Virus record (IMG/VR): IMGVR_UViG_3300038468_000033
Location: 1-39,989 of that record
Length of the DNA: 39,989 bases
Strand: one strand, 5' to 3'
From: a virus
Shown here: positions 223-29,655 of the stretch, piece after piece
Position numbering within the stretch: position 1 is the first letter of the stretch
How the letters are laid out: every line of letters starts with the position of its first letter
Program-made: the position numbers and the translations under genes
The notes under the pieces: generated by a model
The model's database searches: none
What the model was told of the DNA's origin: nothing
What the model saw: only the letters and a program-made list of their open reading frames with translations

Positions 223-249
223 TGCGAAACCTCCTATTGTTCAAGCCGG

Positions 250-301
250 TTTCCCCCGCTCAAACGGGGGATACTCAATCCCGTTTGATGGAGGGGGAAA
301 C
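250..301. repeat. Two-part hairpin upstream of the SprT-like gene
   Basis: GTTTCCCCC at 250-258 pairs with GGGGGAAAC at 293-301. Inside, CAAACGGG pairs with CCCGTTTG, with a competing CCCCCG...CGGGGG hairpin around 254-271. In leftward transcripts it lies about 15 nt upstream of the AGGAGG of the gene starting at 222, so it could be a terminator, attenuator or processing element. Its inner hairpin resembles the CCCCGTTTGAACGGGG hairpins at 37067 and 37720. Confidence 0.6.
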
Positions 302-307
302 TAAGAT

Positions 308-335
308 CCCCGCGCGGAAAGGTTTCCGCCCGGGG
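308..335. repeat. Perfect short hairpin
   Basis: GCGGAAA (314-320) and TTTCCGC (323-329) form a 7-bp stem with a 2-nt spacer, extended outward by CCCC (308-311) and GGGG (332-335). It is one member of the hairpin chain between 250 and 640. Confidence 0.6.
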
Positions 336-439
336 AAGACTGTCAACTAGACCCGTTGAATGTCGGTTCCGCCTGCATCGGCGCGGTTCCCTAGCCTCTT
401 CCGCCGTGCATCAGCCGATCCCCGAATCCCCACCTTACA

Positions 440-490
440 GGGGGAACGTGCTATGCCAAATCGGCTAGTGACGTTCCCCCCGTTCGGGGG
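440..490. repeat. 10-bp perfect inverted repeat followed by overlapping hairpin
   Basis: GGGGGAACGT at 440-449 is the exact reverse complement of ACGTTCCCCC at 471-480, with a 21-nt spacer. The right arm overlaps a second small hairpin, CCCCC-GTTC-GGGGG, ending at 490. The two could be mutually exclusive. Confidence 0.6.
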
Positions 491-527
491 TCAATTCGGA
501 CTAGGCCCGGAGTCGGTCTAAGACTCC

Positions 528-545
528 CCGGGGAAACTTCCCCGG
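528..545. repeat. 8-bp-arm palindrome
   Basis: CCGGGGAA (528-535) and TTCCCCGG (538-545) are perfect complements separated by 2 nt. Confidence 0.6.
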
Positions 546-563
546 TCGCGGTCCGTCTTGCCT

Positions 564-607
564 CCCCCGCTCGGTGTCGGTCTAGGTGTCGGGCGTTTGA
601 GCGGGGG
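564..607. repeat. 9-bp perfect inverted repeat
   Basis: CCCCCGCTC at 564-572 is the exact reverse complement of GAGCGGGGG at 599-607, with a 26-nt spacer. It directly precedes the next inverted repeat in the chain. Confidence 0.6.
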
Positions 608-612
608 TCACT

Positions 613-640
613 CCGACCGGCTGTCAATTGGTCCGGTCGG
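613..640. repeat. 8-bp perfect inverted repeat
   Basis: CCGACCGG at 613-620 pairs exactly with CCGGTCGG at 633-640 across a 12-nt spacer. It is the last clear member of the chain that starts at 250. Confidence 0.6.
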
Positions 641-927
641 TCGCGGAGGAGAATCGCAAGGCCCGTGCCAGAGGCTAACTTGTTGCGGCACATGGTTTTG
701 GGTCAAAGTTACCAGCCATAGATCGTGCTGGATGCAATTGCATTTTGCAAAACGCGAATCCGCCTGTGTGACGCCCGCACGCCCGCGCGCCCGTCATCAT
801 GTGCGCGAAGGGGAAGTGTGCGAAAACGCACGGTGTTGAATTCTGCGACAGGGAATGGGGTCTTTTGGCCCCATTGGGTTTGCAATACTATGACGCATGT
901 GTGCACACACACACACACGCGCATGAT

Positions 928-971
928 GCGCGCGTACAGGCGCGCGTACAGGCGCGCGTACAGGCGCGCAG
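928..971. repeat. Three 12-bp direct repeats (iteron-like)
   Basis: GCGCGCGTACAG occurs three times head-to-tail at 928-939, 940-951 and 952-963, followed by a partial copy to 971. A CA dinucleotide run lies just upstream. The repeats are in the non-coding region downstream of the RepA-like gene, where iterons of a replication origin would be expected. A plain microsatellite is the alternative. Confidence 0.65.
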
Positions 972-1312
972 GCGTGCGCGAGGGGGGGGCACCACGTTCG
1001 CAATGAGGTCATGTCTATTTAGGGTGCGTCCAACCCACTCACCAGCACTCACGGGTCCTCCGTTTTTGGTTCCATCCTTGGCTCCATATTGGGTCCCATA
1101 TTAGTCTCTGCCCCTAAACTCCCAAATTTTCCTATAATTTTGCCTATCTTCTTGCGCCACAATAATTTGGGTCACATATTATTTGTTGTGAAAATCGCCT
1201 CGTTTCTAAGGCCCCTAGCGAGGCTCAGGAGCGAGCCGGATTGGGGACCCTTGCTGGATGGGTTGAGGGGGGTGGATTGTGGAACAGGGAGCGCCCGGCT
1301 TGCCCGAGCGAG

Positions 1313-1364
1313 TTCGGAAGGGAGGAGGACGGACTCCAGAAGGGAGTCCTCCTCCCTTTCCGAA
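1313..1364. repeat. Long imperfect hairpin downstream of the RepA-like gene
   Basis: The arm starting TTCGGAAGGGAGGAGGAC at 1313 is complementary to the arm ending TCCTCCCTTTCCGAA at 1364, with GGACTCC and GGAGTCC continuing the stem towards a 5-nt loop. Only a few bases are bulged over more than 20 bp. It may end the leftward RepA-like transcript, although no clear U-tract follows, or it may be a cruciform-forming element. Confidence 0.6.
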
Positions 1365-1412
1365 GGAGCCTCGTCTTCCAGAACTGTTCCAAATTCTTTT
1401 TAGAACCCCTCA

Positions 1413-1438
1413 CCCTAGGGGGTATTTACCCCCTAGGG
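1413..1438. repeat. Perfect 12-bp-arm palindrome
   Basis: CCCTAGGGGGTA is followed after 2 nt by its exact reverse complement, TACCCCCTAGGG. Such a long near-continuous palindrome is a typical protein-binding or cruciform site. A smaller hairpin, TTGCTA-TATT-TAGCAA, lies at about 1465-1480. Confidence 0.7.
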
Positions 1439-1490
1439 CGTTCCGCGTTTTGTTCCACAAACCGTTGCTATATTTAGCAATAACTTGCCG

Positions 1491-27300: not shown

Positions 27301-27301
27301 G

Positions 27302-27454
27302 CTAGTGGTAGCAACTGTTGATTATTGCGAAGCCGATGCCGACTAGGGCGTATGTAACTCCACGCCTCTCGTCGCGACCCGCACAAATTATCGCAATAAT
27401 CATGAAAATGAGTGATGCTATTCTGGTTGTTAGGTCGGCTAACTCATGCGCCAC
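27302..27454 (-). CDS. Two-helix membrane microprotein
   Basis: A 50-residue frame starts at GTG 27454 (AAAGGG about 8 nt upstream; GTG 27463 is also in frame). It has two hydrophobic segments, IASLIFMIIAIICAG and YALVGIGFAIINSCYH, separated by a charged loop RDERRGV. It ends 1 nt before the ATG of the zinc-finger gene, so the two are probably co-translated. Function unknown. Confidence 0.6.
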   Translation of the reverse strand: MAHELADLTTRIASLIFMIIAIICAGRDERRGVTYALVGIGFAIINSCYH

Positions 27455-27595
27455 GCTATACACCCTTTCTATATGAGCGCACCCACACGGTCCAAACCTT
27501 GGGTCTTCCTCCGCGAACTCCCACCTTGTCCACCCGTGCCGGTTTCCCTTTACGGTTCAGACTGAGAGTCTAGTTTGGCTGTCTAGTGGGCGCGC

Positions 27596-27682
27596 TCAAA
27601 ATCTCAGAAACACCAACACAGACACTACCCACGCCATCACTACAATTATGAGTAGTGCCAGAATCATGATTATTATTTTCAT
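27596..27682 (-). CDS. 28-residue single-helix membrane microprotein
   Basis: GGAGG at 27691-27687 lies 4 nt before an ATG opening 28 codons, nearly all hydrophobic: MKIIIMILALLIIVVMAWVV, then SVLVFLRF. The whole peptide is one transmembrane helix with an FLRF end. It is one of several membrane microproteins in the leftward block. Confidence 0.5.
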   Translation of the reverse strand: MKIIIMILALLIIVVMAWVVSVLVFLRF

Positions 27683-27737
27683 GAAGCCTCCGAGTCGCAG
27701 CCACCTTCCCGAGAATGCCCGCTCGCGGATGGGCACC

Positions 27738-27755
27738 CTGCATGTTTCCATGCAG
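27738..27755 (-). ncRNA. GNRA-capped hairpin
   Basis: Leftward RNA reads CUGCAUG-GAAA-CAUGCAG: a perfect 7-bp stem capped by a GAAA tetraloop. GNRA caps usually mark functional RNA rather than coding sequence. It lies about 110 nt downstream of a tRNA and could be part of a larger structured leader. Confidence 0.45.
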
Positions 27756-27862
27756 GTCAGAAATACGGTGGATTTTGAGCAGCTTTTCAGCTTTTTGGGT
27801 ATCAGTCGTCATTTGGAATAGCTTTCCACTTTCACCCTTGAGCTTCTTAGTTGCTCCATAGC

Positions 27863-27999: not shown

Positions 28000-28545
28000 C
28001 TATACCTCGATCGTCAGGGTCGCGTTCCGGAGGGAGAGCAGCCCGTCGAGAGTCCCCAGAATCTCTTCGAGCCGCTCCACCTCCGCCGACAGTTCCTTCT
28101 CGGGGAGATACACCCCGATGTCCCCGAGGGCGTCGGAGGGGTCGGTGGGAGCCGGGCCGGTCTTGTACCCGATCTTCTTTGCCTCTTCGCGGACCCGGTT
28201 GATCCGTTCCTGAATCTGCCCGAGGAACCGCTGGCGACCCGGAGCCACCTCGCGCCGCCACACCAGCCAATCCGCCACCGTCATCGTGATCCCGGCGATA
28301 GTAATGCTGGCCTTCCCGTTCTCGATCTGGATAGCCCGGCGAATCGTGATGATCCGCTCCTCCAGATCCTTGATCGCCTGCCGTTCCCGCTCGATCGCGG
28401 CGGCCGATCCCCCCTCCTTCGCCAGCACGTCCACGAACATATTCTGCCGCGCGACGTAGTTCAGGACGAAGGTTCGCTTCTTTTCGATTCTCTTCCCGAT
28501 GGTCTTGATCTCGGCAAGCCCCTCGGTAATCGTCATCGTTCCCAT
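28000..28545 (-). CDS. Helical protein of unknown function
   Basis: AGGAGGGTGC precedes the ATG at 28545. The 181-residue protein is mostly coiled-coil helix (ERERQAIKDLEERIITIRRA; RQRFLGQIQERINRVREEAKK) with a central DWLVWRREVAPG and a C-terminal ELSAEVERLEEILGTLDGLLS heptad. No family is recognised. It overlaps the upstream gene by 13 nt. A structural or oligomerising role is plausible. Confidence 0.7.
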   Translation of the reverse strand: MGTMTITEGLAEIKTIGKRIEKKRTFVLNYVARQNMFVDVLAKEGGSAAAIERERQAIKDLEERIITIRRAIQIENGKASITIAGITMTVADWLVWRREVAPGRQRFLGQIQERINRVREEAKKIGYKTGPAPTDPSDALGDIGVYLPEKELSAEVERLEEILGTLDGLLSLRNATLTIEV

Positions 28546-28769
28546 GCACCCTCCTTGATTTCAGAAACTTTGATGAATCGGTTCTCTCTCCCGTATTCAA
28601 AGACTTCGCACACATTCATCGTGCGTGCGAAGTCGGAGAGATTCCCGGCATCGTCGTACATTTGGACCATTACATGGTCCCTAGTAACTAGGAAAAGAAT
28701 CTTCCCCCACGGGGTTACTTTGTCGTCTTGGACTTTGTATACAATCTGTCCACGCACCCACTCATTCAT
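28533..28769 (-). CDS. Small beta-rich protein starting 2 nt after tRNA-Glu
   Basis: The 78-residue product (VRGQIVYKVQDDKVTPWGKILFLVTRDHVMVQMYDDAG) is beta-rich with a charged tail. Its only ATG lies 2 nt after the CCA end of tRNA-Glu, so the ribosome site would lie inside the tRNA acceptor (GGGGCUACC). If the tRNA is cut out, the mRNA is essentially leaderless. Function unknown. Confidence 0.65.
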   Translation of the reverse strand: MNEWVRGQIVYKVQDDKVTPWGKILFLVTRDHVMVQMYDDAGNLSDFARTMNVCEVFEYGRENRFIKVSEIKEGAWER

Positions 28770-28771
28770 GT

Positions 28772-28846
28772 TGGTAGCCCCGCCGGGACTCGAACCCGGG
28801 TCTCATGGTTGAAAACCACGTATCCTAACCCCTAGACGAAGGGGCC
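28772..28846 (-). tRNA. tRNA-Glu (UUC)
   Basis: The 75-nt cloverleaf with encoded CCA has anticodon stem CGTGG/CCATG and loop TTTTCAA, giving anticodon UUC. The 5' sequence GGCCCCTTCGTCTAGGGG matches the hallmark tRNA-Glu start (CCCCTTCGTCTAG). The T arm is CCGGG-TTCGAGT-CCCGG. The acceptor has a G-U closing pair and a U-C mismatch at position 7-66. Confidence 0.93.
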
Positions 28847-29403
28847 AGTAATGATGGCGCGATGGGGGTCCCATCACTCCGGGACGAGCCATCCCGCAAG
28901 ACAGCCCTGTGGAAGCCATCGCGCCAAGTTGATTCGCGTAGCCGCGCCGGGAGTATCCGCTGACCGACGTAGACACTCCGCGGGGGAGATTCCATATTGA
29001 GGCCCGTCAAAACCCCATCGGTCAACCCGCACGCTGGCACGTCGGCGCACATGGAAGATTCCCCCAAACATGGCGAGGATGGCCTGTCTACTCCTCGGGA
29101 GCATGTACCTCTTTCCCTCGCCATGAAGGGGGCAAATCCGCGGGGCCGCGCCGTGGCGTTCGGGGCAGCAGGAGGTTGGCCACGCAACCCCGAGGAGGAC
29201 ACCAGCCCCGCGATTGTTTGGGGGACGGGACCGGACTCACGGTGAGCGAAGACATCCGTAGTCCTACCCCCCGAAAGAGGTACTCGTAAAAATCCCGTCC
29301 CCAGAAATTCGACGCCGACCAATTCCGGCTTCTCAACGGGACCCCCGCCAAGGGACCGCCGAGCGTGCCGAAGGAGTGGGCTCCACCTTGGTCGGCGTCA
29401 TTC
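28847..29403 (-). ncRNA. Candidate large ornate structured RNA (ROOL/GOLLD-like context)
   Basis: A 557-nt gene-free stretch lies between a leftward gene stop (29404) and tRNA-Glu. Long complementary segments fill it. Perfect pairs are 29388-29399 with 29311-29322 (12 bp), 29293-29302 with 29221-29230 (10 bp), GCCCCGCG near 29205 with CGCGGGGC near 29139 (8 bp), 29116-29125 with 29069-29078 (10 bp) and 28915-28924 with 28856-28865 (10 bp). GGACTACGG/CCGTGAGTCC, GGAGTGTC/GATACTCC and a two-part 29051-29065/28982-28995 helix are near-perfect. CCGACGU/ACGUCGG and UGACCGA/UCGGUCA would cross the last helix as alternative pseudoknots. RNase P cleavage of tRNA-Glu would define the 3' end. Known phage ROOL and GOLLD RNAs are of similar size and often adjoin tRNAs; identity is unproven. 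Confidence 0.75.
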
Positions 29404-29655
29404 CTATTCCGTTCTCCAGACCCGAATCCCGGGGACACCCGCCTTCTCGTCCTTGGGCGAATACCGGGTGCAGAACTTCGCGTACTTCTTCCGGTTCTCG
29501 TAGGTCACGCGCCCCGTGATCCGCGATTTTGTCTTCTCGTCGTCCGGCTCGCAGGGAACGAGGAACGAGTCGTTCACTTCCATCTTCCGGAAGGGGTAGT
29601 CGCCTCGCTCTTTCCGCCTCCCCGGAGGAATCGGAACCCCCTTGTCGATTTCCAT
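29404..29655 (-). CDS. Small conserved phage protein of unknown function
   Basis: GGGAGGGGCA precedes the ATG. The 83-residue product has DKGVPIPPGRRK, YPFRKMEVNDSFLVP, RVTYENRKKYAKFCTRYSPKD and GIRVWRTE. This is a pattern I associate with a short phage family (D-G-P-P ... YPF-M-GDSF ... RVWR). Function unknown. It is the last coding gene before the large structured RNA. Confidence 0.7.
   Translation of the reverse strand: MEIDKGVPIPPGRRKERGDYPFRKMEVNDSFLVPCEPDDEKTKSRITGRVTYENRKKYAKFCTRYSPKDEKAGVPGIRVWRTE

What the first reader, a model, noticed from the sequence alone, without database searches (positions are those of the whole stretch)
28847..29403. Large ornate structured RNA candidate next to tRNA-Glu
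This 557-nt gene-free stretch contains at least five perfect helices of 8-12 bp, three near-perfect ones and two alternative 7-bp crossing (pseudoknot) pairings. It is bounded by a stop codon and a tRNA. Size, phage context and tRNA adjacency are those described for ROOL and GOLLD RNAs, but I cannot assign it to either; it may be a new class. RNase P cleavage of tRNA-Glu would create its 3' end.
Basis: partly seen in the sequence, partly recalled or inferred. Interest (0 to 1): 0.88.

Follow-up and report, generated by a model that had tools for sequence, protein, structure and literature searches.

The report
Orphan large phage RNA beside tRNA-Glu
A gene-free 557-base stretch of an uncultured phage genome very probably makes a large folded RNA that matches no known RNA family, but no relative of it could be found, so whether it is a new class, and what it does, cannot yet be proved.

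Summary
Window 29403->28847 (minus strand) has no coding signature. It lies between a stop codon (29404) and tRNA-Glu. It has 6 exact helices of >=10 bp (shuffles 0.23, maximum 3 in 400) and is the top-scoring tile of ~18,000 in 1.36 Mb of phage DNA. The fold favours the leftward strand: the energy difference between strands and the excess of G-U pairs are both beyond all 150 shuffles. That points to RNA, not DNA palindromes. The P4 loop can pair with both the P2 and P3 loops, so the predicted shape is ornate and pseudoknotted. It is not ROOL, GOLLD, OLE or any other Rfam 15 family. No homologue was found in any collection I could search, so covariation is untested and 'new class' is unproven. 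Folding energy alone is weak evidence, because some coding tiles of this phage fold about as well.

Following the neighbourhood gave a stronger result. 900 bases downstream lies a different RNA (27997->27683), which shares a DIP1984-family protein gene with about 50 diverse phages. It has strong covariation (90% of cells paired against 62% shuffled), a tRNA in its linker in about 14 phages, and no Rfam match. The finding is not a member of that family.

The parts
28847..29403 (-). The finding ('RNA-A'): 557-nt gene-free, structured RNA candidate; RNA position r = 29404 - window position
29311..29399 (-). P1 hairpin: 12-bp exact stem 29388-29399 x 29311-29322 closing a smaller branched arm
29221..29302 (-). 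P2 hairpin: 10 bp exact (12 with G-U) 29291-29302 x 29221-29232
29139..29212 (-). P3 hairpin: 10 bp 29203-29212 x 29139-29148
29069..29125 (-). P4 hairpin: 11 bp 29115-29125 x 29069-29079; its loop holds both crossing arms
29105..29283 (-). Crossing pairing X1: P2 loop x P4 loop, 11 bp exact, 29273-29283 (GUACCUCUUUC) x 29105-29115 (GAAAGAGGUAC)
29091..29197 (-). Crossing pairing X3: P3 loop x P4 loop, 29188-29197 x 29091-29100 (CUCCUCGGGG x UCCCGAGGAG), part of a 19-nt 79% match
29060..29225 (-). Alternative pairing X2: 11 bp exact 29215-29225 x 29060-29070, competes with the base of P2/P4
28855..28926 (-). P5, 3' terminal hairpin: 11 bp exact 28916-28926 x 28855-28865, directly before tRNA-Glu
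28772..28846 (-). tRNA-Glu (TTC), CCA encoded; expected RNase P cut at 28847/28846 (inferred)
29404..29655 (-). Upstream gene on the same strand, 83 aa, DUF7303-related; its stop is the 5' boundary
28533..28769 (-). Downstream 78-aa ORF, starts just after the tRNA's CCA; no family match

Best explanation
RNA-A is a phage-encoded, non-coding, self-folding RNA made from the leftward transcript that also carries the DUF7303-like gene, tRNA-Glu, a 78-aa ORF and a DIP1984-family gene. RNase P trimming of tRNA-Glu would free its 3' end. It would fold into five strong hairpins, with the P4 loop kissing the P2 and P3 loops, and act as a structured RNA body (scaffold or RNA-RNA assembly) in the manner of the tRNA-adjacent ornate phage RNAs. 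Shown: no coding signature, a helix excess far over chance, a strand-specific (RNA-level) fold, tRNA adjacency, no known family. Inferred: transcription, processing, the kissing interactions and the assembly role.
For: Exact helix excess, 0 of 400 shuffles. Highest tile of 18,009 for long-range exact pairings. Energy difference between strands -41.2 against -19.2 +- 6.6 in shuffles, and G-U pairs 34 against 10 (difference 24 against 10.8 +- 4.5), both 0 of 150 shuffles, as expected if helices are kept as RNA of the leftward strand. Flat codon-position GC and negative codon scores. Two crossing pairings of 11 bp where 0.075 are expected (Poisson about 0.003). Same strand as its neighbours and abutting a tRNA.
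Against: No homologue, hence no covariation. MFE z of -3.6 to -4.0 is matched by one coding tile of the same phage (-3.7). No sigma-70-like promoter or intrinsic terminator on this strand near it, though phage and host promoter types are unknown. The kissing pairs compete with local hairpins in the nested MFE. No expression data.
Confidence: 0.5

Rival explanations
1. It is a cis element of the operon mRNA: a long structured leader or spacer that protects the transcript, attenuates or insulates, or presents tRNA-Glu to RNase P, with no life as a separate RNA.
For: It sits inside a same-strand gene run with no promoter-like or terminator-like site of its own on that strand, and it directly abuts tRNA-Glu.
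Against: 557 nt with loop-loop pairings is far more than known leaders of single tRNAs need; the tRNA interrupts the path to the next ORF, so processing would separate it from the mRNA.
Confidence: 0.2
2. DNA-level function: a palindrome-rich site (replication origin, recombination or packaging site) whose hairpins matter in DNA.
For: Exact helices are strand-symmetric by nature. A second gene-free region (223-700) folds strongly on both strands, as a DNA element would.
Against: RNA-A's fold is strongly strand-biased and rich in G-U on one strand only. The helices are interleaved over 460 nt rather than being local palindromes.
Confidence: 0.1
3. Neutral GC-rich spacer containing old inverted duplications that look like structure.
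For: One 41-nt 80% inverted match (r179-215 x r305-344) could be a decayed inverted duplication. No conservation is known, and coding tiles reach similar MFE z.
Against: The exact helices have unrelated sequences and none of 400 shuffles comes near their number. A one-sided G-U excess is not expected of decaying inverted repeats, which would give A-C and G-U mismatches alike.
Confidence: 0.15
4. A very divergent ROOL or GOLLD that covariance models miss.
For: Size, phage context and tRNA adjacency match what is described for both (PMC12286853).
Against: No hit to RF03087 or RF02032 at E<=10 over the record, nor in the permissive all-Rfam scan.
Confidence: 0.05

Closest known systems
ROOL RNA (Rfam RF03087)
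   Same: Phage/prophage RNA of ~570-660 nt, often near tRNAs, many helices with pseudoknots, function unknown (PMC12286853)
   Different: No covariance-model match at all; octameric cage untested here
GOLLD RNA (Rfam RF02032)
   Same: Phage RNA by tRNA genes, elaborate fold with kissing loops (PMC12286853)
   Different: No match to the conserved 3' domain model; shorter than the >800 nt of many GOLLD; tRNA lies after it, not in its linker
OLE RNA
   Same: Large ornate bacterial RNA
   Different: No Rfam match; phage context; no OLE partner genes were looked for or seen
The DIP1984-linked phage RNA family found here (window 27997->27683)
   Same: Same transcript direction, 900 nt downstream in the same gene cluster, also tied to a tRNA
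   Different: Different sequence and structure: RNA-A does not match its HMM or covariance model

Membership tests
ROOL | Covariance model RF03087 match (gathering 99.1 bits) | tested here: not met
   no match up to E 10 (the control genomes held no ROOL, so no positive control in that call)
ROOL | Encoded in phage/prophage near tRNA genes | tested here: met
ROOL | Homo-octameric RNA cage | not testable with these tools
   needs cryo-EM or mass photometry
GOLLD | Conserved 3' domain, covariance model RF02032 | tested here: not met
GOLLD | Near or containing tRNA genes in a phage | tested here: met
   tRNA-Glu abuts its 3' end
OLE | Rfam covariance model match | tested here: not met
   (all 4,227 families)
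OLE | Adjacent OapA/OapB/OapC protein genes | not tested
   only 27675-27866 matches in the window
A new RNA class (any) | Homologues with compensatory base changes | tested here: inconclusive

The most novel reading that the evidence does not exclude
RNA-A is the first known member of a new class of large, tRNA-linked, kissing-loop phage RNA. In this phage it is encoded in the same transcription unit as a second, independently new RNA (the DIP1984-linked family), so this virus would carry two unrelated ornate RNAs side by side, possibly working with the same tRNA-processing step.
Probability: 0.35. Interest if true: 0.8.

Novelty: new variant of a known kind. Interest (0 to 1): 0.6.

Why it matters
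ROOL and GOLLD were shown in 2025 to build RNA-only cages (PMC12286853), yet why phages make such RNAs next to tRNAs is open. A third, unrelated tRNA-adjacent large RNA in a small podovirus-like genome would argue that the habit is general, and would give a compact test object. The neighbouring DIP1984-linked RNA is firmer: a covarying phage RNA family with a constant protein partner and tRNAs lodged in its linker, absent from Rfam 15.

Tried and rejected
Homologue hunts for RNA-A that found nothing: blastn 'distant' in phages and plasmids (only the tRNA matches); whole-record search of 50 phages related by terminase or sharing the DIP1984 gene; IMG/VR and GTDB scans with six peptide patterns back-translated from an open frame through the RNA; exact 16-17-mer scans, whose 36 hits have no further similarity. 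Finding close relatives of the phage failed: terminase <=34%, capsid <=31% identity to anything found. ROOL/GOLLD/OLE rejected by covariance models. A protein reading was rejected by codon statistics. I first folded 27301-27862 as a '562-nt second RNA'; alignment showed the conserved unit is 27997-27683 and includes the tRNA, so that larger outline is dropped. A model search of 150 proteobacterial genomes for the second RNA gave only weak hits; the two best are simple 7-nt repeats and false, the rest were not inspected. Motif look-alikes between RNA-A and that family (CCUUCGGCA) failed HMM and CM tests. No listed fold other than 3kdq stood out for the DIP1984 protein.

Full report
WHAT WAS CLAIMED.

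WHERE IT LIES. The whole window is one IMG/VR virus record of 39,989 bases. Rightward genes encode terminase, portal, scaffold, an Mx8-like capsid protein and an internal virion protein. From ~26 kb on, genes run leftward. The order around the finding, all leftward, is: DUF7303-like ORF (29655-29404), the finding (29403-28847), tRNA-Glu with encoded CCA (28846-28772), a 78-aa ORF (28769-28533), a 181-aa DIP1984-family gene (28545-28000), and then another RNA (see below).

IS THE STRUCTURE REAL? Exact Watson-Crick pairings: 8 of >=9 bp, 6 of >=10, 4 of >=11, against shuffle means of 0.85, 0.23 and 0.075, never reached in 400 dinucleotide shuffles (Poisson for >=4 of 11 bp ~1e-6). Counting long-range exact pairings in 560-nt tiles over all DNA then held (1.36 Mb, 18,009 tiles), the finding is the single top tile. 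Folding energy on the leftward strand is -271 kcal/mol, z -3.6 to -4.0; on the other strand z is -0.5 to -0.8. The difference between strands is itself beyond all 150 shuffles, as is the one-sided excess of G-U pairs (34 against 10). G-U on one strand is A-C on the other, so this says that the helices suit an RNA of the leftward strand rather than DNA hairpins. Caution: the MFE z-score alone is not special in this genome, where tiles average -1.3 +- 1.6 and one coding tile reaches -3.7; and the second RNA below, whose structure covariation supports, shows no such strand bias, so absence of bias would not have refuted it.

CODING? All ORFs through the stretch have negative codon scores and flat GC by codon position, unlike every reference gene. 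No ORF is a plausible gene.

ANATOMY. Five strong hairpins in order: P1 (12 bp), P2 (10-12), P3 (10), P4 (11), P5 (11). The P4 loop contains two arms: one is the exact 11-bp complement of the P2 loop (GUACCUCUUUC x GAAAGAGGUAC), the other pairs ~10 bp with the P3 loop (CUCCUCGGGG x UCCCGAGGAG). These could be intramolecular pseudoknots or bridges between copies; kissing loops are among the bridges that hold the GOLLD and ROOL assemblies together (PMC12286853). Another 11-bp pairing (29215-29225 x 29060-29070) competes with P2/P4 and may mark an alternative fold.

KNOWN FAMILY? No. cmscan with all Rfam 15 models finds only tRNA above threshold. RF03087 and RF02032 over the whole record find nothing.

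HOMOLOGUES? None found. The phage itself is an orphan: best relatives share <=34% identity in terminase and about 30% in capsid. Consequently covariation could not be tested and the claim 'new class' stays open.

MECHANISM. Most likely a stable non-coding RNA whose 3' end is made when RNase P matures tRNA-Glu, and which acts as a folded or self-assembling RNA body. Shown: structure beyond chance, strand, non-coding nature, tRNA adjacency. Inferred: transcription, processing, kissing, assembly, function.

WHAT THE NEIGHBOURHOOD REVEALED. The DIP1984-family gene downstream (phrog_1491, labelled 'tail fiber' in PHROGs) occurs in 59 IMG/VR loci. Just 3' of it in 49 of 51 downstream regions tested (the window's included) sits a conserved RNA (window 27997->27683); the two without it downstream (L036, L057) carry it upstream of the gene. 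On 38 aligned members, 90.1% of cells pair against 62.5% when shuffled and ~40% when slid; the covariation score is 0.742 against 0.219; 30 of 33 pairs show double changes, including a 13-bp stem joining the two ends. It contains AAAGCUG-like repeats spaced 7, 14 or 21 nt, and in about 14 phages ARAGORN finds a tRNA of varying anticodon in its linker. In the window that tRNA has an 8-nt anticodon loop that could close as a cUUCGg tetraloop (sequence). Rfam sees nothing there but tRNA. The protein is predicted at pLDDT 94.5 and resembles 3kdq, a Corynebacterium diphtheriae protein of unknown function (DIP1984, name from my own knowledge; Foldseek probability 1.00, E 4.5e-3; VIA-align Z 11.2, rmsd 5.9 over 153 residues); 15 of 52 members match NCBIfam DIP1984_fam at E <= 0.01. 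Two actinobacterial DIP1984 genes have no such RNA nearby. The finding is not a member of this family.

VERDICT. Observation confirmed; interpretation partly supported: a well-supported single-copy structured RNA candidate, not ROOL/GOLLD/OLE, class and function unproven.

Noticed in passing
window 27997->27683 (-); homologues in L006-L064: A covarying phage RNA family not in Rfam 15, found next to a DIP1984-family gene (phrog_1491): 49 of 51 downstream regions, plus L036 and L057 upstream; 30 of 33 pairs with double-sided changes, a stem joining 5' and 3' ends, AAAGCUG repeats at 7-nt steps. Probably a new protein-RNA pair.
   Followed up: yes
window 27937->27863 (-): tRNA lodged in the linker of that RNA, with an 8-nt anticodon loop ACUUCGGA that can close as a cUUCGg tetraloop, so probably not an ordinary decoder; about 13 other phages carry a tRNA of varying anticodon at the same place.
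   Followed up: partly
window 223-700 (either strand): Another gene-free stretch folding far better than shuffles on both strands (z -5.3 and -5.6), with a 14-bp exact long-range pairing 253-266 x 594-607; no Rfam match. Could be an origin or a further RNA.
   Followed up: partly
window 900-1460: GCGCGCGTACAG tandem copies (928-975), a long palindrome at ~1320-1370 and palindromes at ~1410-1440 in a gene-poor stretch; may be a replication or packaging region.
   Followed up: no
window 28000-28545 (-): PHROGs calls phrog_1491 'tail fiber protein', but its predicted fold and NCBIfam hits point to the DIP1984 family; the label is doubtful.
   Followed up: yes
L223 1501-1581 and L224 1501-1696: Bacterial genomes with simple tandem 7-mers (TAAAAGC / AAAAGAT) that mimic the repeat part of the second RNA; treated as false hits.
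   Followed up: partly
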